Assembly (NCBI RefSeq): GCF_030580995.1
Contig: NZ_JAUQSZ010000014.1
Span: 1-64,000 of the forward strand
DNA: 64,000 bases
Direction of reading: 5' to 3'
DNA from: Sphingomonas immobilis
GTDB lineage: Bacteria; Pseudomonadota; Alphaproteobacteria; Sphingomonadales; Sphingomonadaceae
The translations under genes were made by a program, and so were the position numbers. Below are positions 1 to 53,858 of this stretch, in pieces. How positions within the stretch are numbered: the first letter of the stretch is position 1; every line of letters starts with the position of its first letter. The notes beneath the pieces were generated by a model. The model did not search any database and was not told where the DNA came from. It was given only the letters and a program-made list of their open reading frames with translations.

Positions 1-59
1 CTCGCCGGTACTGCGAAAGCGAGCGGCGCGGCGCTGATCAGGAGAAGAAGCGACTTCAT
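1..59 (-). CDS. copB: CopB copper resistance outer-membrane protein, N-terminus only (partial)
   Basis: Only the first 19 or so codons are inside the window. They begin MKSLLLLISAAPLAFAVPA, a clear Sec signal peptide (one Lys, a leucine-rich core, AVPA-type end). The ATG at 59 overlaps the copA stop codon in an ATGA arrangement, so the two are translationally coupled. In proteobacterial copper operons the gene directly after copA is normally copB, an outer-membrane copper-binding protein. The name rests on that position plus the signal peptide; the diagnostic part of the protein lies outside the window. Confidence 0.6.
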   Translation of the reverse strand, partial: MKSLLLLISAAPLAFAVPA

Positions 60-1951
60 GCGGCTTCTCCCCGGGGACGTACAGAGACGACGCGCATCAT
101 CCCGGCGTGCATGTGGTAGAGCATATGGCAGTGGAAGGCCCAATCTCCGACGGCGTTGGCGGTGAGATCGAAGCTCACCTTGCCGCCCGGCGCGACGTTC
201 ACCGTGTGCTTGCGCGGCGAATATTCGCCATGGCCCGTGACCAGCTCGAAAAAATGTCCGTGAAGATGGATCGGGTGCGACATCATCGTGTCGTTCACCA
301 GCGTGACACGCACCCGTTCATTTTCGAGAAACGGAATCGGCTCCCGCTTGTCGCTCAGCTTCACGCCGTCGAACGACCACATATAGCGTTCCATGTTTCC
401 GGTCAGATGAATCTCCATTGCGCGGTCGGGTGCCCGCACGTCGGGATTGCGGTCGACCGCCATGAGATCGCGATAGACCAGAACACGGTGCCCGACATCG
501 TCAAGGCCCTGTCCGGGCTCTCCCGTGCGATCCATCGGCATAGGAGAGATCGTCTGCACGCCAGGCCCCATCTTGACCTGCGGGGCTTTGCTGGCGTCGC
601 GCATATTCATGCCGCCCATTCCGCCCATCGCCATGCCGCCCATCGCGTCGCCGGCAGGCGCACCCATTCCAGGCATGTTCGCCATCGAACCATCGGCCGG
701 CTTGTCCATTGCGGGCATCGAGGCCCCGGATTCCATGTTCATTCCAGCCATACCGCCCGCGGCGGCCCCGCTTGCCGACATGTCATGTCCCATCGCTGAG
801 TGGTCCATGCCTTGCATGCCACCCATATCCATGTCCCCCATGCCCATGTCTTTCATATTAGCGAGGGGACGTTTGCGGAGCGGAGGCACTTCAGCTGCCA
901 TGCCTTCGCGCGGAGCCAAGGTTGCGCGGGCCATGCCCGACCGATCGACGGATTCGCCGACCAGCGTATAGGCGCGATCATCAGTCGGTGTGACGATGAC
1001 GTCGTAAGTCTCGGCCACCGCGATCTGGAATTCGTCAACCTCGACGGGCCTGACGTTGAGCCCGTCAGCCTGAACCACGGTGAGCTTGAGTCCCGGAATT
1101 CGGACATTGAATGTCGTCATGGCGGAGGCATTGACGAAGCGCAGTCGGACCCGCTCGCCCGGTCGGAAAAGCGCGGTCCAATTATCCTGGGGCCCATGCC
1201 CGTTCACGAGGTATGTATAGGTCGAACCCGTGACGTCGGAGACGTCGGTCGGGTCCATCCGCATGTTGCCCCAGTCAAGACGTTCCTTGAGTGGTTGGTC
1301 TTCCTTGGCCAGCAGGCCGGCCAGCGTTTGGCGCTGATAGTTGAAATAGCCTCCGCCGACCTGCTTGAGCTTCCGGAAGATCGCGTGGGGGTGCATCTGG
1401 CTATGGTCGGAAAGCACGACGACATGCTCGCGATCCGAGCGGATCGGGTCCTCGCCTTCCGGATCGATGACGATCGGCCCATAATGGCCCATCTGCTCCT
1501 GCAGCCCCGAATGGCTATGATACCAGTAGGTCCCCGCCTGCACGATCGGGAACTCATAGACGAAGGTCGACTTGGGCTTGATGCCGGGAAAGCTGATCCC
1601 GGGCACGCCATCAAACTGGAATGGTACGAGTAAGCCATGCCAGTGGATCGAGCTGTCTTCGTCGAGATCGTTGATCACCGAAAGGCGCGCCGTCTGGCCC
1701 TGGCGCAGCCGGATGAGGGGTGCCGGCACCGTGCCGTTGATGCCAATGGCATGGCTTGCCCGGCCATCGATCATCATCATCTGATGGGCGATTTTGAGCG
1801 TGATATCGTTCCCGGTGACGATCGGGAGCGGCTTCACGATCCCGGCCGAAACGGGCTGAGCCCATGCTGGCATCCAGGCCGACAATGCCAGACCACCGCC
1901 GGTCAATGCGGCACCGCGGAAAAGGTCGCGGCGGTTCAATACCGGGGGCAT
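56..1951 (-). CDS. copA: Multicopper oxidase CopA, copper resistance
   Basis: Periplasmic multicopper oxidase of the CopA/PcoA family, which oxidises Cu(I) and sequesters copper. The 631-residue protein starts with a twin-arginine signal (NRRDLFRGAALTGG). Cupredoxin copper ligands are visible: HWHG and YHSH in domain 1, and HPIHLHGH plus HCHMLYH at the C-terminus. Between the domains lies a long Met-rich stretch (repeated MGGM, MPGM and MDHSAM units, roughly residues 365-455) of the type that binds Cu(I). The ATG at 1951 was chosen because AAGGAGA lies 6 bases upstream; an in-frame extension to 1978 has no such site. It is preceded by an ECF-type promoter at 2022-2048 and overlaps copB by ATGA. 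Confidence 0.95.
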   Translation of the reverse strand: MPPVLNRRDLFRGAALTGGGLALSAWMPAWAQPVSAGIVKPLPIVTGNDITLKIAHQMMMIDGRASHAIGINGTVPAPLIRLRQGQTARLSVINDLDEDSSIHWHGLLVPFQFDGVPGISFPGIKPKSTFVYEFPIVQAGTYWYHSHSGLQEQMGHYGPIVIDPEGEDPIRSDREHVVVLSDHSQMHPHAIFRKLKQVGGGYFNYQRQTLAGLLAKEDQPLKERLDWGNMRMDPTDVSDVTGSTYTYLVNGHGPQDNWTALFRPGERVRLRFVNASAMTTFNVRIPGLKLTVVQADGLNVRPVEVDEFQIAVAETYDVIVTPTDDRAYTLVGESVDRSGMARATLAPREGMAAEVPPLRKRPLANMKDMGMGDMDMGGMQGMDHSAMGHDMSASGAAAGGMAGMNMESGASMPAMDKPADGSMANMPGMGAPAGDAMGGMAMGGMGGMNMRDASKAPQVKMGPGVQTISPMPMDRTGEPGQGLDDVGHRVLVYRDLMAVDRNPDVRAPDRAMEIHLTGNMERYMWSFDGVKLSDKREPIPFLENERVRVTLVNDTMMSHPIHLHGHFFELVTGHGEYSPRKHTVNVAPGGKVSFDLTANAVGDWAFHCHMLYHMHAGMMRVVSVRPRGEAA

Positions 1952-2021
1952 AGTATCTCCTTGTTCAACGTGCAGCACTCCGGGTCCGCAAAGGCGCTCG
2001 AGCGCGGTATCTCTCTCTCCT

Positions 2022-2048
2022 TACGCGCGAGCGGGGCGCACCCCTCAT
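2022..2048 (-). promoter_or_regulatory. ECF-type promoter for copA
   Basis: Read on the minus strand, ATGAGGGGT is followed by exactly 13 bases and then GCGTA. The same two boxes with the same 13-base spacing occur before copC and before the cytochrome c gene. The upstream box overlaps the last codons of the sigma gene. Predicted transcription start is near 2012, giving a leader of about 60 bases before copA. Assignment to the local ECF sigma factor is inference. Confidence 0.65.
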
Positions 2049-2617
2049 TCCTCGGCCAAGATTTCCGCAAGGCGCGACCGCGCACGGTAAAGGCGCGTCT
2101 CGACCGCCTTGCCACTTATCGAGAGCGCAGTTGCCGCTTCCGACTGATTCAGCCCTTCGACTGTGCGGAGCAACAGAACTTCCCGCAACGAGACCGGTAG
2201 CGCGCTGATTGCGGCGGCCATTCGTTTGATCTCCATTTTTGAGTCGGCACTGGCATGCGCGGAGGGTGCATCATCCGGCACTTGTTCGATCTCGGCGTCG
2301 GACGCTGCATAACCGAAGGTGAAGAGCTGCCGCACCTTCTGGCGGCGGCGCCAGTCGCGGCATTTGTTGATCGCGATCCGGGACAGCCAAGCCCTTAGCG
2401 GCCGCGCGCCATCATATTTTCGCAGATGGCTGAACGCGGAGACGAAGCAGTCCTGGGTGAGGTCTAGCGCGTCCTCGGCATTCCCCACCAGGCCGCGTAC
2501 CAGTCGAAATATCGCAGCCTGGTGCCGATGCATGATCTCTGCGAAGGCCGGCTGCCGACCGGCGAGCGTTAGCGCCGCAAGTTCACCGTCCGAGCACGCG
2601 CGAAGATCCAGACTCAC
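2045..2617 (-). CDS. ECF RNA polymerase sigma factor (CnrH-like)
   Basis: A 190-residue sigma-70 family protein of ECF size. Region 2 is seen in AIFRLVRGLVGNAEDALDLTQDCFVSAF and the region 4 helix-turn-helix in LPVSLREVLLLRTVEGLNQSEAATAL. It starts with GTG at 2617, overlapping the stop of the CnrX-like sensor gene (GTGA), so the sensor and sigma are coupled. The order small membrane protein - periplasmic sensor - sigma matches the cnrYXH type of metal-responsive module: the sensor and membrane anti-sigma hold the sigma factor until metal arrives. Likely targets are copA, the cytochrome c gene and copCD, which share a promoter motif. Confidence 0.92.
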   Translation of the reverse strand: MSLDLRACSDGELAALTLAGRQPAFAEIMHRHQAAIFRLVRGLVGNAEDALDLTQDCFVSAFSHLRKYDGARPLRAWLSRIAINKCRDWRRRQKVRQLFTFGYAASDAEIEQVPDDAPSAHASADSKMEIKRMAAAISALPVSLREVLLLRTVEGLNQSEAATALSISGKAVETRLYRARSRLAEILAEE

Positions 2618-3051
2618 CGTGCATCGTCGGTGAGCGCATGTACCACCGCCTGATCGAAGGTCTTGGCCTGATCAGGGCGCAAGATCTGGCGCATCGCGAA
2701 GATATGGCCAAGCGTTTCCTTCTGCAGCTCGCCCATCGCCTGATGCGACTGATCGACGGCCGCCGTGACACCCGGTCCGTTGCCATGTTCGGCTTCGATC
2801 GCGGCCGCGAGACGCGCGTTGTCCGCTCTCAGTTCGAGCTCCAGCGCGCGACGACGCACGGCAAAGCGCTGCTCAAGCAGCTCGATCTGCGCCTTCTGAC
2901 GGTCGTCCAGGTCGAGCTTGCTGTGCAACACGTCGTGGAGTTCGACACCGGCCGCCTTGGGCTGGGGGAAGAAGTGACGCCCAAGGAACACGCCCGCAAC
3001 GGCTGCGACGAAGGCGACGACAGCTACTAAAACAAGCAATTTTGCCTTCAT
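2614..3051 (-). CDS. Periplasmic heavy-metal sensor, CnrX-like
   Basis: A 145-residue protein with one N-terminal membrane anchor (LLVLVAVVAFVAAVAGVFLG) and a mostly helical charged periplasmic part containing ELHDVLHSKLDLDDRQKAQI, then FAVRRRALELELRADNARLA and HIFAMRQILRPDQAKTFDQ. This is the four-helix layout of the CnrX / Metal_resist family. His and Met residues in the helices (H39, H43, H115) could ligate metal. ATG at 3051 overlaps the upstream gene's stop (ATGA) and its own stop overlaps the sigma gene start, so the three genes form one coupled unit. Metal specificity is inferred as copper from the neighbours only. Confidence 0.85.
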   Translation of the reverse strand: MKAKLLVLVAVVAFVAAVAGVFLGRHFFPQPKAAGVELHDVLHSKLDLDDRQKAQIELLEQRFAVRRRALELELRADNARLAAAIEAEHGNGPGVTAAVDQSHQAMGELQKETLGHIFAMRQILRPDQAKTFDQAVVHALTDDAR

Positions 3052-3329
3052 TGAGAGCCTACCAGCAGCGTCGAGGGGGCAAGCGGATTGGATGGCCCGA
3101 ACGGCGAGAGCGTGACCGATGCCTCGGCAGGCGGCGTAAATCCGTTGCTGGCGATACCGAGCAGCACTGCTCCGAAGGCGGCCACTGCACCAAACCGGAG
3201 TTGAGAAGCGGCCGAAACCTGCGGCAATGCCGCAATGCGTTGGAACACGGCCTCCTCCAGACCGATCAGGCCCGGATGATCCGGTTCATTGCGCAAGCGG
3301 GTCAAAAGCCCATCCAAGTCTGTTTTCAT
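3048..3329 (-). CDS. Small one-helix membrane protein, candidate anti-sigma factor (CnrY-like position)
   Basis: A 93-residue protein. The N-terminal ~40 residues are polar (MKTDLDGLLTRLRNEPDHPG), followed by one hydrophobic segment (FGAVAAFGAVLLGIA, about residues 45-60) and a short Ser/Pro-rich periplasmic tail. That topology and its place as first gene before a CnrX-like sensor and ECF sigma fit a CnrY-type anti-sigma. Sequence resemblance to CnrY itself is not evident by eye. Start taken at the ATG 3329; a TTG four codons upstream is also possible. Confidence 0.7.
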   Translation of the reverse strand: MKTDLDGLLTRLRNEPDHPGLIGLEEAVFQRIAALPQVSAASQLRFGAVAAFGAVLLGIASNGFTPPAEASVTLSPFGPSNPLAPSTLLVGSQ

Positions 3330-3467
3330 CGCAAATCCCAATCTCTATCTGTTCAGCGCGCTGGCACGAGTGCCGCCCCCTCTGCCGTTCGCTCAACCGG
3401 CCCTCAGTGGTTGCGTGCCCCGCGGTCGGTTTGCTGAACGGCGACCTGTCGGCAGGCGGACACATTG

Positions 3468-4064
3468 TTACGGCATCATCTTTTTCATGCCAGGCATATC
3501 CTTCATCATCGCGTCATGGTCTTCAGGCGCACTGGCAAGTGCTGCCTGATATTGCGCCGGGGTCATCTTGGGCAGTTGCCGCACGAAAGCCACCATGTCC
3601 CAGATCAATTCATCGCTATGCGTTTTACCCCAAGCCGGCATCGCAGTCAGCTTGACCCCATGCTTGATGATCCAGAATTGCTCCTTTGCCGATCTCTGTG
3701 GCTCCCGGAAAAGCTCGGGAGCCTTGGGATAAAGGCCCTGGCTGATCTCGGACTTTTCCAGCCCCGGTGCGAGATGGCAGCCGCTGCACATCTCGGTGTA
3801 GAGCCCGGCACCGCTCTGCAGTCGTTTTACATCCATCAGGTTGGCCGGGACGCCCACGTTGCGAGCCCGGACGGCGATCGAGCGATCACGAAGCTGCTCT
3901 ATCAGCCAATAGACCGGTCTGGTGTGCGGCGAATCCGCCCCGATGTCATAGGCGCCCACATATACGACAATCCCAGCCAGTGCACCGCCGACCAGCGCCG
4001 CGACCGCGATGAACGGGCCGCTCGGAAAATGTTTCCGAAGCCATGCCTTCCTTGAATCTTCCAT
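3468..4064 (-). CDS. Membrane-anchored class I cytochrome c
   Basis: A 198-residue protein with an uncleaved N-terminal anchor (GPFIAVAALVGGALAGIVVYVGAYD) and a single heme-binding CSGCH motif (C93-C96-H97). A methionine axial ligand is likely within TAMPAWGKTH. The C-terminus is Met/His rich (HDAMMKDMPGMKKMMP), which hints at copper contact. ATG at 4064 follows GGGAGG by 6 bases. It lies between copCD and the sigma operon and has an ECF-type promoter at 4128-4157, so it probably belongs to the copper response, perhaps taking electrons from CopA-mediated copper oxidation (inference). Confidence 0.85.
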   Translation of the reverse strand: MEDSRKAWLRKHFPSGPFIAVAALVGGALAGIVVYVGAYDIGADSPHTRPVYWLIEQLRDRSIAVRARNVGVPANLMDVKRLQSGAGLYTEMCSGCHLAPGLEKSEISQGLYPKAPELFREPQRSAKEQFWIIKHGVKLTAMPAWGKTHSDELIWDMVAFVRQLPKMTPAQYQAALASAPEDHDAMMKDMPGMKKMMP

Positions 4065-4127
4065 CGCGTCCTCCCCAGCCGAAAAGCCCTCGGTCGATTG
4101 GTGATCTCGCACCCATCCACTTGATCA

Positions 4128-4157
4128 TACGCGCGGCGAGCTTCCACCCCTCATCCG
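4128..4157 (-). promoter_or_regulatory. ECF-type promoter for the cytochrome c gene
   Basis: On the minus strand CGGATGAGGGGT (4157-4146), 13 bases, then GCGTA (4132-4128). The 12-base upstream box forms a perfect inverted repeat with the box of the divergent copC promoter (4217-4228), so the pair are back-to-back copies of one promoter. Confidence 0.65.
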
Positions 4158-4216
4158 CCGCGCAGGTCTGCGGCGCACACCAGTTGGCGCTCCGAATTCG
4201 AAGAAATCGTGCCCGT

Positions 4217-4246
4217 CGGATGAGGGGTCACGGTGCGCGGTGCGTA
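4217..4246 (+). promoter_or_regulatory. ECF-type promoter for copCD
   Basis: CGGATGAGGGGT at 4217-4228, 13 bases, then GCGTA at 4242-4246. This is identical in boxes and spacing to the divergent cytochrome c promoter and shares TGAGGGGT-N13-GCGTA with the copA promoter. The start of copC is about 40 bases downstream of the second box. Confidence 0.65.
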
Positions 4247-4286
4247 AATCGCTTTGTCGGCAGTATCGCCACCCATGGAGAAATCG

Positions 4287-4667
4287 ATGTTTCGTAAAAC
4301 AGCTTTTGCCGTCGCCATGGCGGCGTCTGTGTTCGCCGCTACCGCTGTTCAGGCGCACCCCAAACTCACCAATGCCACGCCCGCGGCCGATACCGTCGCT
4401 TCGGCTCCGACCAGAATTCAGCTCGTCTTTTCCGAAGCACTGGTCGCTCAATTTTCCGGGATCGACCTGACAATGACCGAGATGCCCGGCATGAAGATGG
4501 GGCCGATGAAGATGAACGGTGTCAAGGCGACCGTGGCCGCAGATGGCAAGACGCTCGTGGCCACGCTTGCTAAGCCGCTGCCGGTTGGAACCTACAAGGT
4601 CGACTATCACGTCGTCTCTACCGACACCCATCGCATTCAGGGCAGCTATACCTTCAAGGTCCAGTAA
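4287..4667 (+). CDS. copC: Periplasmic copper-binding protein CopC
   Basis: A 126-residue CopC/YobA-family copper chaperone. The signal peptide (MFRKTAFAVAMAASVFAATAVQA) ends just before HPKL, so mature His1 would be the N-terminal Cu(II) ligand as in the family. The C-terminal DTHRIQG supplies the other conserved ligands. A Met-rich loop (MTEMPGMKMGPMKMNG) could bind Cu(I). ATG at 4287 follows GGAG by 6 bases. It is driven by the ECF-type promoter at 4217-4246 and precedes copD by 4 bases. Confidence 0.93.
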   Translation: MFRKTAFAVAMAASVFAATAVQAHPKLTNATPAADTVASAPTRIQLVFSEALVAQFSGIDLTMTEMPGMKMGPMKMNGVKATVAADGKTLVATLAKPLPVGTYKVDYHVVSTDTHRIQGSYTFKVQ

Positions 4668-4671
4668 GAGC

Positions 4672-5607
4672 GTGCCGGACATCATCGCGATTGCGGTCAG
4701 GCTAGGGCTTTATCTCGATCTCATGCTGCTTTTCGGGTTGCCGATGTTCGGCCTATATACGTTACGCGGGACCGAGCGAGCATCCGGCTCGGTCCTGCGC
4801 TTTCGCTCGGTTTTGGCGACGATCGCGCTCGCCGGCATCGTATTATCGATCTTCGGCATGATAGCCTTGGCGGCCTCGATGGGCGGTGTGCCGGTCGATC
4901 AAGTGGAACGCGCCACTGTCAATCTTTTGATATCGGGCACAGCGATCGGCACCGTCTGGCAAGTTCGGGTGGCAGCACTCTTACTGGTCCTGTACTTTTC
5001 CATTGTCGGGTGGCGACGCCCTGCATTCGCCCTCTGGTCAGTTTCAGTAACGGCAGCAATCGCTCTCGCGACTTTGGCCTGGACTGGTCACGGCGCGGCC
5101 GATGAAGGCTTGTGGGGATGGATCCATCTTGGCGCCGACATCACTCATCTGTTGGCCGCAGGCATATGGATTGGAGCGCTTTCCGCCCTGTGCCTGCTCA
5201 TTTTTCGCCCAGCGGCCCGCATGGCAATCGATCATGTCCACCTGTCACACCGGGCGTTGGATAGCTTCGCAAAGGTAGGATCGATCGTCGTGGGTCTGCT
5301 CATCCTGTCAGGCTTCATCAACAGTTGGATCTTGGTAGGACCGTCCAACCTGGCGGCGCTTTTTACGAGCCTCTACGGCGTGTTGCTGGCAGTGAAACTG
5401 GTGTTGTTTGGCGTAATGCTGTTCCTGGCCGCCGCTAACCGCTTCTTCCTTACCCCTGCCCTGGCGGGAGCGATCGAAACCGGGGAAATATCATCGGCGA
5501 TAGGGTCACTTCGCCGCAGTCTCATTGTCGAGAGCGGCTGTGCGCTCACCATTCTCGCGCTTGTTGCGTGGCTGGGATTATTGGCGCCCCCTGCCTCGGG
5601 GATGTAG
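4672..5607 (+). CDS. copD: Inner-membrane copper import/resistance protein CopD
   Basis: A 311-residue polytopic membrane protein with about eight hydrophobic segments, matching the CopD family (with conserved TGHGAADEGLWGWIHLGADITHLLAAGIWIG, whose His residues lie in membrane helices). The GTG start at 4672, four bases after the copC stop, fits the family N-terminus (PDIIAIAVRLGLYLDLMLLFGL); the open frame extends upstream through copC but that part is not CopD-like. CopC and CopD usually work together in moving copper across the inner membrane. Confidence 0.9.
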   Translation: MPDIIAIAVRLGLYLDLMLLFGLPMFGLYTLRGTERASGSVLRFRSVLATIALAGIVLSIFGMIALAASMGGVPVDQVERATVNLLISGTAIGTVWQVRVAALLLVLYFSIVGWRRPAFALWSVSVTAAIALATLAWTGHGAADEGLWGWIHLGADITHLLAAGIWIGALSALCLLIFRPAARMAIDHVHLSHRALDSFAKVGSIVVGLLILSGFINSWILVGPSNLAALFTSLYGVLLAVKLVLFGVMLFLAAANRFFLTPALAGAIETGEISSAIGSLRRSLIVESGCALTILALVAWLGLLAPPASGM

Positions 5608-5617
5608 ACATTGAGCC

Positions 5618-6916
5618 TTACGGCAAAGCACGCGATATGGCCTTGATTGCTTTCAAGCCCGAACCGAACCGGGAAATCGCCTCTCGGTGACGCTCGAGCT
5701 CGCCATAGGGAAGATAGGCAATCTCAAGATCTGCGATTCGGCTGAATGCGGGCCGCGCGAGTTGTGCCCGCACTTCGCTCTCCCGCGCGTCGGGCGCCAC
5801 AAGAAACAGTCCGGCTGTGGCGTGCAGTTCGCTCCCGCTCAAGGCAAGGTCGAGCATCCGGACGATGCCCGAATAAATCGACGTCGAATGCTCGACTTCG
5901 AAGGCGGCCGCGACGCGGTCGCCGCCTGGCTCGAGCCAAAGCACATCGATAAGGCGGATGGCATCTGCGCCGGTCGATGTTGAAATTGAAGCTGGCAGGC
6001 TCTCAAGACACCCGTCCCCCAAGCGCACGCCATCGTGAAGTCGCCCCCGATCGTTGGATGCTATCCAGATATCGTAGCCCAGCGCACGGCCTATATCGCG
6101 GAGCCAAGCCTGGATTTCCGAATGGGTTCGATCGCTCTCTCCCTGTTTCTGAAGGGCCTTGTTGAGCGTTTGCGCTTCGGCCCTGGCCTGTTCGAGACGG
6201 ACCGCCCACGATCCTACCGTCTGGTCTTCCTCGTCACGCGGCGGCGCCGGGTAGCGGCCCGAGCCGATATCGAACAGGAGGCCGCCAATGGCGCCGAGAT
6301 CGTTCGACAGCAGATCGCGAAACCGTTCGTTCAGGTCCAGCACACCCGAGCGCATCGCGAGAAAATGCTGCCAGCTTCCGAGCTTCACCCTGCCACCGGT
6401 CAGCTTGTTATAGCCGTTGACGATCGCCGTGTTGAACGGCGGCACGAGGGTCGGATGCAGGAAGTAGAGGAGATTGGCGACCGCAGGCCCAAGCCCCTTG
6501 ATGTTCAGCCGATCGATCGTGTGAATACCTGCAATGATTTCTTCGGCAGTGTCGCAACAGGCGCAGTGATCGAGCAACCGGCCGAACGCGCGTTGGTTCG
6601 CTGGATTTTCATAGATGTCAGGGATGCGCAATTTGGGCTTCCAGAGAAACGCATGGTCAGCGCCTTTGAATATCTGCCTCTGCTCCGCGACTGAATGAAC
6701 GACCGTTTCCAGCGAAGAGCCCCGATAGGCCACGCCAAACCGACCGTCTTCGATCTCTGCCACTACCTGAGCCAGACCACGCCGGATCGAACGGAAGTTT
6801 TTGATGCGCTCGTCCCAAAGAAACCAGCTTTGATAGGTCGCGTTGGGGTCTTCCTTCCATCGTTGGATCAGTTGCCGCGCAAGCAATTCAAATTCCGCCA
6901 AACCCCGTTCCCCCAC
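5618..6916 (-). CDS. HhH-domain protein with PD-(D/E)XK-like C-terminus; putative restriction-type nuclease
   Basis: A 432-residue protein of unclear function. The N-terminal half has a helix-hairpin-helix-like segment (IDRLNIKGLGPAVANLLYFLHP, about residues 135-156) of the DNA-binding kind. After a short coiled stretch (VRLEQARAEAQTLNKALQKQ) the C-terminal half reads DVLWLEPGGDRVAAAFEVEHSTS followed by a strand (AGLFLVAPD), the D...ExE core of a PD-(D/E)XK-type fold with E in place of the usual K. It is monocistronic and convergent with copD. The start is uncertain: GTG at 6916 has a poor ribosome site and TTG at 6901 is an alternative. It could be a solitary type II-like endonuclease without a methyltransferase beside it. 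Confidence 0.55.
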   Translation of the reverse strand: MGERGLAEFELLARQLIQRWKEDPNATYQSWFLWDERIKNFRSIRRGLAQVVAEIEDGRFGVAYRGSSLETVVHSVAEQRQIFKGADHAFLWKPKLRIPDIYENPANQRAFGRLLDHCACCDTAEEIIAGIHTIDRLNIKGLGPAVANLLYFLHPTLVPPFNTAIVNGYNKLTGGRVKLGSWQHFLAMRSGVLDLNERFRDLLSNDLGAIGGLLFDIGSGRYPAPPRDEEDQTVGSWAVRLEQARAEAQTLNKALQKQGESDRTHSEIQAWLRDIGRALGYDIWIASNDRGRLHDGVRLGDGCLESLPASISTSTGADAIRLIDVLWLEPGGDRVAAAFEVEHSTSIYSGIVRMLDLALSGSELHATAGLFLVAPDARESEVRAQLARPAFSRIADLEIAYLPYGELERHREAISRFGSGLKAIKAISRALP

Positions 6917-7001: not shown

Positions 7002-7274
7002 TCATCTGATGTCGTCGGGAATATGCATCAGCAGGTCACGGGTGTAGTCGATCAGGAGATCGCCAACGGTTGCCCCGTAAAGCGCGAGAAACAAGATGAA
7101 CCCCAGGAGCTTGGGGACGAAGCTCACGGTCTGTTCGTTGATCGACGTCGCGGCCTGGATCATGGAGATAATGAGTCCGACCACCAGCATGATTATCAGC
7201 GGTGGTCCAGCGACGAGCATCATCACCCAAAGCGCTCTGCCCATCGAAACCGAAAACGGGCTGTAGGTCTCCAT
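7002..7274 (-). CDS. fliQ: FliQ-like export apparatus protein, orphan
   Basis: A 90-residue protein with two membrane helices and the family hallmarks: GRALWVMMLVAGPPLIIMLVVGLIISM, then QAATSINEQTVSFVPKLL, then LIDYTRDLLMHIP. FliQ/SctS/HrcS proteins are about 85-90 residues, so it is full length. The ATG at 7274 follows GGGGGAGAG; an upstream in-frame extension has no family similarity. FliQ normally sits between fliP and fliR in a flagellar or type III cluster, but here its neighbours are a nuclease-like gene and a thioredoxin reductase, and no other flagellar gene is present. Confidence 0.88.
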   Translation of the reverse strand: METYSPFSVSMGRALWVMMLVAGPPLIIMLVVGLIISMIQAATSINEQTVSFVPKLLGFILFLALYGATVGDLLIDYTRDLLMHIPDDIR

Positions 7275-7590
7275 CTCTCCCCCGTCGATGATGGTGTCGT
7301 CGCCCCCTGACGTTGCGACCAGTGGTTGTTGCGGGGGCGAGCAACATGGTGCGCGATCGGGTTTATACCCGTCCGTCTGCCCCACATCCGCTCGCCCCCG
7401 CGCCACGCTGCGACCCGTGGGCACCTGAGTTGTCCATCCTGCTTGGCGATGGTCTTCATCTGAATTTACGCAGCGACGCGGTTTACCCCTCGCGACCCAC
7501 CGCTTTTTTTCGAAGAACGCGCAGGCTTTCGAGGGAAGAAGGGGCGTGCCGCGTAATAGGAGTGACGGGCGAGGTCAGCGAAAGGCAGGC
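7275..7590. other. Intergenic region between divergent fliQ and the flavoprotein gene
   Basis: About 315 bases with no credible gene. It must hold the promoters of both divergent genes, but I could not identify convincing boxes, repeats or a regulator site in it. Confidence 0.4.
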
Positions 7591-53202: not shown

Positions 53203-53858
53203 AGGTCGAACCCGTCACCGGGCTGCTGGAGCCGGTGGAAGGTTATGCCAGCCTTCTCGAAATAGGGCTCATAGGTATCGTAGCGCTGCGTCAGGAACCA
53301 GTCGCGGGCATAGCCATCGTGGACCGGGAGCACATGGCTTGGACGCATGGAGCTGGCGAACTCGTAGGCGCCGATCTCGGTCAGGAACGGCGCCATCACC
53401 GGCAGCGCCAGCGCCTCAATTCCAGCAAATTGGTGGAGCCGTTCATCAAAGCTATCGCCGGGATTGAGAAGGCGATCATTGACGACGAATGCCAGAACGG
53501 CCGGGATTTCTTCGGCGAGGATCGGCTCATGGCGCACCGGCAGGGCACGGACCGTGAATGGTCCAAGGTCGAGCCCTTCCTCTCCGACCTCGCTGACGGT
53601 GAAGCCCTGGCTGCGCAACGTGGCTGCGACCTTGTTGCCTCCGAATATCCGCGGTTCGCCATCGCCGACGATGGTGCGTAGCGCCTCGCAGTCGAAATGA
53701 TCGGGATGGCCGTGCGTAAATAGGATGAAATCCACGTCGCTGAGGTCGCGAGGATCGACGCGCCCATCGACGAACGAGAATTTGCCCGGGTCGAACAGCA
53801 GCCGCTTGCCGTCGAGCGTCAGCCGCAGGCAGCTATGCACAAATTTCTCGATACGCAT
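53199..53858 (-). CDS. MBL-fold metallo-hydrolase (UlaG-like)
   Basis: A 219-residue metallo-beta-lactamase-fold enzyme. FLFDPGKFSF, the metal motif THGHPDHFD, a later HEPILAEEIPAVLAFVV and PVHDGYARDW supply the ligands. The pattern resembles UlaG/RomA-type hydrolases rather than beta-lactamases. ATG at 53858 follows AAGGAGG; coupled to the DUF202 gene by GTGA. Confidence 0.85.
   Translation of the reverse strand: MRIEKFVHSCLRLTLDGKRLLFDPGKFSFVDGRVDPRDLSDVDFILFTHGHPDHFDCEALRTIVGDGEPRIFGGNKVAATLRSQGFTVSEVGEEGLDLGPFTVRALPVRHEPILAEEIPAVLAFVVNDRLLNPGDSFDERLHQFAGIEALALPVMAPFLTEIGAYEFASSMRPSHVLPVHDGYARDWFLTQRYDTYEPYFEKAGITFHRLQQPGDGFDL

What the first reader, a model, noticed from the sequence alone, without database searches (positions are those of the whole stretch)
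2022..4246. Three copper genes share a bipartite promoter TGAGGGGT-N13-GCGTA
The boxes and the exact 13-base spacing occur before copA (2048-2022, minus), the cytochrome c gene (4157-4128, minus) and copCD (4217-4246, plus); the last two share a 12-base upstream box, CGGATGAGGGGT. Two conserved boxes at fixed spacing, next to an ECF sigma gene, define a likely sigma regulon and promoter code not listed among common ECF groups I know (usually AAC-containing -35). The sigma operon itself lacks a good copy.
Basis: partly seen in the sequence, partly recalled or inferred. Interest (0 to 1): 0.75.

Follow-up and report, generated by a model that had tools for sequence, protein, structure and literature searches.

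The report
CnrH-type sigma promoters of copper genes
Three to four copper-resistance transcription units in this sphingomonad carry the same two-part promoter, which is very probably the recognition code of a neighbouring metal-responsive sigma factor related to the nickel/cobalt regulator CnrH; the code is kept across many sphingomonads and suggests that a known signalling module was put to work on copper.

Summary
The motif is real: three exact copies of TGAGGGGT-N13-GCGTA in the window, none elsewhere in the 4.13 Mb genome, none in 100 shuffles. A fourth, one-mismatch copy (7467-7492, minus) precedes an orphan fliQ gene and is exact in several relatives. In 80 sphingomonad loci holding the sigma gene, the boxes pair at spacing 13 in 99 distinct sequences, at 14 in one, at no other spacing from 6 to 25. 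Fifteen sigma-positive genomes missed by the relaxed motif still show degenerate copies at the same spacing. So this is very probably the promoter code of the local ECF sigma. It is not an unknown kind: sigma and sensor are nearest CnrH and CnrX among solved structures, and the cnr promoters of Cupriavidus pMOL28 read AAGGGG/GAGGGG with CCGTA, the listed cnrY start lying 9 bases after CCGTA. Written TGAGGG-N16-CGTA it is an ordinary ECF layout with GGG in place of AAC (SigW consensus recalled). Best reading: a copper-dedicated CnrYXH-type regulon. Copper induction and sigma dependence are inferred. Extras: the copA -35 box often includes sigma's own stop codon, and an orphan FliQ seems to belong to the regulon.

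The parts
2022..2047 (-). Site 1, promoter of copA (multicopper oxidase). -35 TGAGGG 2047-2042, -10 CGTA 2025-2022; its first TGA is the stop codon of the sigma gene. Predicted start near 2013
   Evidence: exact match; start predicted from cnr promoters, 9 bases after the CGTA
4128..4153 (-). Site 2, promoter of the cytochrome c gene and, by read-through, probably of the Y-X-sigma operon. Predicted start near 4119
   Evidence: exact match; no minus-strand terminator-like site between 3468 and 3329
4221..4246 (+). Site 3, divergent promoter of copCD. Predicted start near 4255
   Evidence: exact match
7467..7492 (-). Site 4, one-mismatch copy (CGAGGGGT) about 190 bases before an orphan fliQ gene
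   Evidence: [TC]GAGGGNT-N13-GCG[TC]A kept 177-193 bases before fliQ in 22 of 23 near-clade loci with a FliQ hit
2045..2617 (-). ECF sigma factor, CnrH-type (190 aa)
   Evidence: Pfam Sigma70_r2/r4_2; nearest solved structure CnrH 4cxf, 1.6e-30, next 6.2e-17
2614..3051 (-). CnrX-type membrane-anchored periplasmic metal sensor (145 aa)
   Evidence: PF13801 5.5e-18; CnrX/NccX structures, best 1.6e-19; five candidate metal ligands invariant in 6 aligned sensors
3048..3329 (-). Small protein in the place of anti-sigma CnrY (93 aa); one membrane helix by eye
   Evidence: no Pfam or NCBIfam match; position and a C-terminal P..LL shared with CnrY
3468..4064 (-). Cytochrome c (CBB3 type), first gene behind site 2
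   Evidence: PF13442 2.8e-14
4275..4667 (+). copC, periplasmic copper protein
   Evidence: NF033814 6.8e-38
4672..5607 (+). copD, copper membrane protein
   Evidence: NF033808 2.1e-85
56..1978 (-). copA (PcoA-type multicopper oxidase), behind site 1; longest frame given, a start at 1951 is more likely
   Evidence: TIGR01480 4.2e-247
7002..7274 (-). orphan FliQ-family protein, behind site 4
   Evidence: PF01313 8.6e-24

Best explanation
The motif is the promoter recognised by the ECF sigma factor encoded beside it. The sigma belongs to a CnrYXH-type transmembrane switch: the CnrX-like sensor binds metal (copper) in the periplasm, the small CnrY-like membrane protein then releases the sigma, and RNA polymerase with that sigma starts at TGAGGG-N16-CGTA promoters in front of copA, cytochrome c (reading on into the Y-X-sigma operon, a positive loop), copCD and fliQ. 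Shown: motif, fixed spacing, conservation, co-occurrence with the sigma, homology to CnrH/CnrX, the same layout at cnr promoters with mapped starts. Inferred: that this sigma and no other reads the sites, that copper is the signal, and that the operon is reached by read-through.
For: Exact copies only here in the genome. Spacing spectrum in 80 sigma loci: 99 distinct sites at 13, 1 at 14, 0 elsewhere from 6 to 25; TGAGGGNT-N13-GCGTA in 78 of 80 loci, its reverse in 0 (in the spectrum the reversed pattern gave 1 hit, at spacing 18). Family scan not conditioned on sigma: 113 exact sites in 71 of 298 genomes against 8 for the reversed pattern (sites counted, control columns by my count). Of 63 sites in sigma-positive genomes 56 lie within 16 kb of the sigma. 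19 of 20 stretches fetched from genomes without a listed sigma contain sensor and sigma, 18 also copA. Of the 15 sigma-positive genomes without the relaxed motif, 12 hold GAGGG-N15-GCGTA (22 hits; 1 hit at N16, 0 at the other spacings from 6 to 26; reversed 0 at N15) and all 15 the looser AGGG-N16-CGTA (30 hits, 0-4 at other spacings). Three loci of other alphaproteobacterial families hold GAGGG-N15-GCGTA (7 hits). cnr promoters on pMOL28: CAAGGGGG-N14-CCGTA and CGAGGGGA-N14-CCGTA; the cnrY start 53286 listed in PMC11647585 (passage) is 9 bases after CCGTA. Of 147 distinct sites 118 have a homologue of this cluster's proteins downstream. Candidate CnrX ligand positions invariant.
Against: No expression data for this organism. 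The genome holds other ECF sigmas (one search lists 25 first-look candidates), not tested. 7 of 63 sites in sigma-positive genomes are not within 16 kb of a listed sigma, and stretch L134 has the motif with only a weak sigma hit (36 bits). The relaxed motif also hits by chance (reversed control 49 hits in 44 of 298 genomes, my count). The loci were chosen by the sigma (in one search also by the motif), and many are near-identical copies. The Cupriavidus authors label the cnrY start 53286 as RpoD (PMC11647585, passage), and PMC9045368 (passages) speaks both of a strong RpoD-dependent promoter and of non-RpoD CnrH-dependent cnrYp, so that start is not clean proof of CnrH use. The sensor ligands are the same as in the nickel/cobalt sensor, so copper specificity does not follow from them; in Sphingobium sp. 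ba1 CopA, CopB and CopC rise in nickel (PMC5557971, passages; motif there not checked).
Confidence: 0.8

Rival explanations
1. The boxes are an activator or repressor binding site (CopR- or MerR-like) and transcription is by the housekeeping sigma.
For: Copper genes are commonly ruled by CopRS or CueR (general knowledge). For cnrY the Cupriavidus authors also see an RpoD promoter.
Against: The motif is directional, not palindromic, has one spacing, and tracks the sigma gene; I did not test whether it also tracks a two-component system. The same layout occurs at the cnr promoters. Only one sigma-70-like site in 1900-4400, no more than in shuffles.
Confidence: 0.04
2. The sites are read by the sigma, but the natural inducer is nickel/cobalt or several metals, and the copper genes serve a wider metal response.
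For: Sensor keeps the candidate CnrX ligands; Sphingobium sp. ba1 CopA/B/C rise in nickel (PMC5557971, passages).
Against: The genes behind 118 of 147 distinct sites are homologues of this copper cluster's proteins, though that scan did not look for metal pumps; the C. henricii relative sits among copper genes, with an RND permease beside them.
Confidence: 0.15
3. Chance repeats or a duplicated leader sequence copied with the genes.
For: The last two sites share 12 letters.
Against: 0 of 100 shuffles hold a single exact match, and the boxes are kept while spacers and flanks diverge across 110 distinct sites.
Confidence: 0.01

Closest known systems
CnrYXH / CnrH of Cupriavidus metallidurans pMOL28 (nickel and cobalt; ECF20 in the ECF classification, label recalled)
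   Same: Gene order Y-X-H with touching genes, nearest solved sigma and sensor, invariant candidate sensor ligands, -35 GAGGGG/AAGGGG and -10 CGTA, a promoter before Y and one just behind H for the resistance genes
   Different: 38.8% identical sigma; spacer one base shorter; -10 GCGTA instead of CCGTATA; targets are copper oxidase, CopCD and cytochrome c instead of an RND pump; copA promoter often overlaps the sigma stop codon
CorE of Myxococcus xanthus (copper ECF sigma, group 44, label recalled)
   Same: An ECF sigma tied to copper genes
   Different: CorE senses through a Cys-rich C-terminal extension and its promoters hold AAC in the -35 (PMC10141476 and PMC3107203, passages); here no such extension, a separate sensor, GGG in the -35
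Bacillus SigW-type promoters (TGAAAC-N16-CGTA, recalled)
   Same: Same register and same CGTA -10
   Different: GGG replaces AAC; recognition helix reads KAVE (or KSVE, KTVE) where SigW, the sigma-H factor of 6in7 and RpoE read GTV followed by K or R

Membership tests
CnrYXH-type sigma system | sigma nearest CnrH | tested here: met
   phmmer 1.6e-30 to 4cxf, next solved ECF 6.2e-17
CnrYXH-type sigma system | CnrX-like periplasmic sensor with conserved ligands | tested here: met
   1.6e-19 to CnrX structures; H39, H43, E60, H116, M120 invariant in 6 aligned sensors including CnrX; that these are the CnrX ligands is recalled
CnrYXH-type sigma system | CnrY-like membrane anti-sigma | tested here: inconclusive
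   right place and size, 19% identity to CnrY, invariant P and LL near the C-terminus, no family hit
CnrYXH-type sigma system | promoter GAGGGG with CGTA -10 | tested here: met
   spacer differs by one base; use of the cnrY start by CnrH is clouded by an RpoD label in PMC11647585
CnrYXH-type sigma system | autoregulation of the YXH operon | tested here: inconclusive
   copy directly before Y in distant relatives; in the window only by read-through from cytochrome c, no terminator found
CnrYXH-type sigma system | metal-dependent release of sigma | not testable with these tools
   needs experiment
ECF group 20 of the ECF classification | assignment by the group model | not testable with these tools
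   model and group promoter logo not held
CorE-type copper sigma | Cys-rich C-terminal extension and AAC -35 | tested here: not met
   sigma ends RLAEILAEE after region 4 with no Cys there; -35 is TGAGGG

The most novel reading that the evidence does not exclude
CnrYXH signalling, described for nickel and cobalt, has become the main copper switch of sphingomonads and spreads on plasmids. It reads a GGG-type -35 set by a KAVE recognition-helix signature, places its target -35 box on the sigma gene's own stop codon so that sigma and copA are locked together, and drives an orphan FliQ-family membrane protein as an unrecognised copper-resistance factor.
Probability: 0.4. Interest if true: 0.65.

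Novelty: new variant of a known kind. Interest (0 to 1): 0.5.

Why it matters
It gives a search rule (GAGGG-N15-GCGTA, usually C or T before the GCGTA), checked against spacing and reversed controls, for the metal regulon of many environmental and plasmid-borne copper clusters. It sets a one-triplet change in an ECF -35 box (AAC to GGG) beside a clear change in the recognition helix, and points to unassigned proteins (FliQ-like, DUF411, DUF305) as likely copper regulon members. I found no report of this regulon in the listings of 10 searches of the held open-access library; the library lacks most subscription journals, and only the top rows of each listing were seen, so it may be in print elsewhere.

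Tried and rejected
CorE membership: rejected (no C-terminal Cys domain, no AAC). A new kind of ECF code: rejected after reading the cnrY and cnrC promoters. The 12-base box as a distinct element: rejected. Lack of the exact motif in 44 of 78 sigma-positive genomes looked like evidence against; the relaxed pattern left 15, and those 15 showed degenerate copies. The pattern is loose enough to hit by chance, so I added a spacing and reversed control: GAGGG-N15-GCGTA in 12 of 15, not in L148, L152 and L153, which have only looser copies. Motif in 37 genomes without a listed sigma looked like evidence against; 20 stretches from 19 of those 37 genomes showed a more divergent sigma in 19 stretches (in L128 the sigma hit is split over frames and copA is not in the stretch); the other 18 genomes were not fetched. 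A class-wide sigma search gave 5 hits in 385 genomes at the cut-off used, of which three from other families were read. For the two further one-mismatch sites in the genome (C4, C15) I saw no recognisable copper gene by eye in the first 300 downstream bases; no search was run. Literature: no printed CnrH consensus was found in the passages seen; Grass et al. 2000 (PMC94428) is not held, and my memory of its consensus (CRAGGGGRAG, CCGTATA) is recall, though the sequences agree. The cnrC figure in PMC4803752 was seen only as a legend. In one search the alignment A1 contains CnrH itself, so its 4cxf score is not independent; searches are.
Full report
None of 100 shuffles of the window holds one exact copy, and a search of the whole 4.13 Mb genome, allowing spacers of 12 to 14, finds these three alone. 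With two mismatches allowed the window has 4 matches against 1.19 expected, which 5 of 100 shuffles reach. With one mismatch (and G or A in the seventh place) the genome has six, the reversed control one. The fourth in the window, CGAGGGGT at 7467-7492 minus, is probably a genuine member: near relatives keep it 177-193 bases before the same gene, in eight loci as exact TGAGGGGT-N13-GCGTA.

The surroundings form one module. On the minus strand run cytochrome c (3468-4064), a 93-residue protein without family (3048-3329), a Metal_resist sensor (2614-3051), an ECF sigma (2045-2617) and the multicopper oxidase copA; on the plus strand copC and copD. Among solved structures the sigma is nearest CnrH (1.6e-30; next 6.2e-17) and the sensor nearest CnrX and NccX (best 1.6e-19). 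Five residues that I recall as the CnrX metal ligands (H39, H43, E60, H116, M120 in the window protein) are invariant in six aligned sensors. The small protein aligns weakly with CnrY (19%).

Conservation. A scan of genome contigs with the sigma found 159 relatives, of which the best 80 loci were kept, nearly all named as sphingomonads, 50 to 98% identical. Pairs of TGAGGGRT and GCGTA at spacings 6 to 25 occur in 99 distinct sequences at 13, one at 14 and none elsewhere; the reversed pattern gave one hit, at 18. TGAGGGNT-N13-GCGTA is in 78 of 80 loci (misses L067 and L098), its reverse in none. One further position is kept, C or T before GCGTA. Many of these loci are near-identical copies, so distinct sequences were counted.

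Independent of the sigma, the exact motif occurs 113 times in 71 of 298 family genomes, against 8 for the reversed control (sites counted, control columns by my own count). Of 63 sites in genomes with a listed sigma, 56 lie within 16 kb of it and 7 do not. The other 50 sites are in genomes without a sigma at E below 1e-35. I fetched 20 stretches from 19 of these 37 genomes: 19 stretches hold the sensor and a more divergent sigma (18 also copA), while one (L134) has only a weak sigma hit. With a relaxed motif, 63 of 78 sigma-positive and 55 of 220 sigma-negative genomes match (my reading; Fisher 4e-18); the reversed control of that motif gives 49 hits in 44 of 298 genomes by my count, so a share of these is chance. 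The 15 sigma-positive genomes left over were all fetched. Twelve hold GAGGG-N15-GCGTA, 22 hits, with one hit at N16 and none at the other spacings from 6 to 26, and no reversed hit at N15; all 15 hold the looser AGGG-N16-CGTA, 30 hits against 0 to 4 at other spacings. The copies read lie before Y, before copC or behind the sigma, one or more of these per locus. Three loci from other alphaproteobacterial families hold GAGGG-N15-GCGTA seven times, with a changed first letter.

The code is known in kind. On Cupriavidus pMOL28 the cnrY and cnrC promoters read CAAGGGGG-N14-CCGTA and CGAGGGGA-N14-CCGTA. PMC11647585 (passage) lists a cnrY start at 53286, which is 9 bases after CCGTA; PMC9045368 (passage) puts the cnrY and cnrC starts 24 and 25 bases before the genes, which for both gives 9. 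A caution: PMC11647585 labels that cnrY start RpoD, and PMC9045368 speaks both of a strong RpoD-dependent promoter before cnrY and of non-RpoD, CnrH-dependent cnrYp and cnrCp. PMC4803752 (passages) confirms by cRACE that the cnrC start lies downstream of cnrH. A Caulobacter henricii copper plasmid has TGAGGGGT-N14-GCGTA before a copper-binding protein. Written TGAGGG-N16-CGTA, the window's code has the register of the SigW consensus TGAAAC-N16-CGTA (recalled) with GGG for AAC. In the recognition helix the family and CnrH read KAVE, KSVE or KTVE where SigW, the sigma-H factor of 6in7 and RpoE read GTV and then K or R. That this sets GGG against AAC is my inference.

How it works, most likely: copper in the periplasm is bound by the CnrX-like sensor, the CnrY-like protein lets go of the sigma, and the sigma-polymerase starts about 9 bases after GCGTA at sites 1 to 4. 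Metal identity is inferred from the targets: of 147 distinct sites, 118 have a homologue of this cluster's proteins downstream within the limits of the scan, and among the 29 others are DUF411 and DUF305 proteins and a His/Cys-rich small protein without Pfam match; but those loci were chosen by the sigma or the motif, and pumps were not searched for. Against copper alone, CopA, CopB and CopC of Sphingobium sp. ba1 rise in nickel (PMC5557971, passages); I did not check for the motif there.

A curious overlap: in 40 of 80 loci the TGA that opens the copA -35 box is the sigma gene's stop codon; in 13 more a strict copy starts 8 bases before to 147 bases after the stop, and 27 have no strict copy there. 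The same coincidence is seen in the window (2047-2045) and in several divergent modules, such as L127, L129 and L136.

Verdict: observation confirmed, regulon interpretation well supported, novelty of the code overstated. It is a copper-associated variant of the CnrYXH kind. Nothing here measures transcription.

Noticed in passing
window 7002-7274 (-); L034-L117: An orphan FliQ-family protein (PF01313) seems to belong to the copper regulon: 42 of 84 loci (many near-identical) have a FliQ relative; 22 of 23 near-clade loci have the promoter pattern 177-193 bases upstream (in L036 and L038 the FliQ hit is only partial), and in 19 distant loci fliQ lies right behind copD in a copC-copD-fliQ arrangement. 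The genome has a second FliQ at C14 and a broken partial one at C15. Function unknown.
   Followed up: partly
window 2045-2047 and relatives: The sigma gene's TGA stop codon is the first triplet of the -35 box of the next promoter in 40 of 80 loci; in some relatives (L063, L072) the sigma reading frame instead ends on the TAG of a GCGTAG.
   Followed up: partly
L060 8706 (+): In a Sphingosinicella locus a copy of the promoter precedes a large protein that looks, by eye, like a TonB-dependent receptor.
   Followed up: no
window 5618-6916 (-): A 432-residue protein between copD and fliQ with no Pfam match; the gene at the same place in the relative plasmid pBAR4 is annotated type II restriction endonuclease.
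   Followed up: no
plasmids collection: Sigma relatives occur on 74 plasmid records, 40 predicted conjugative, mostly of sphingomonads, so the module is found on mobile DNA.
   Followed up: no
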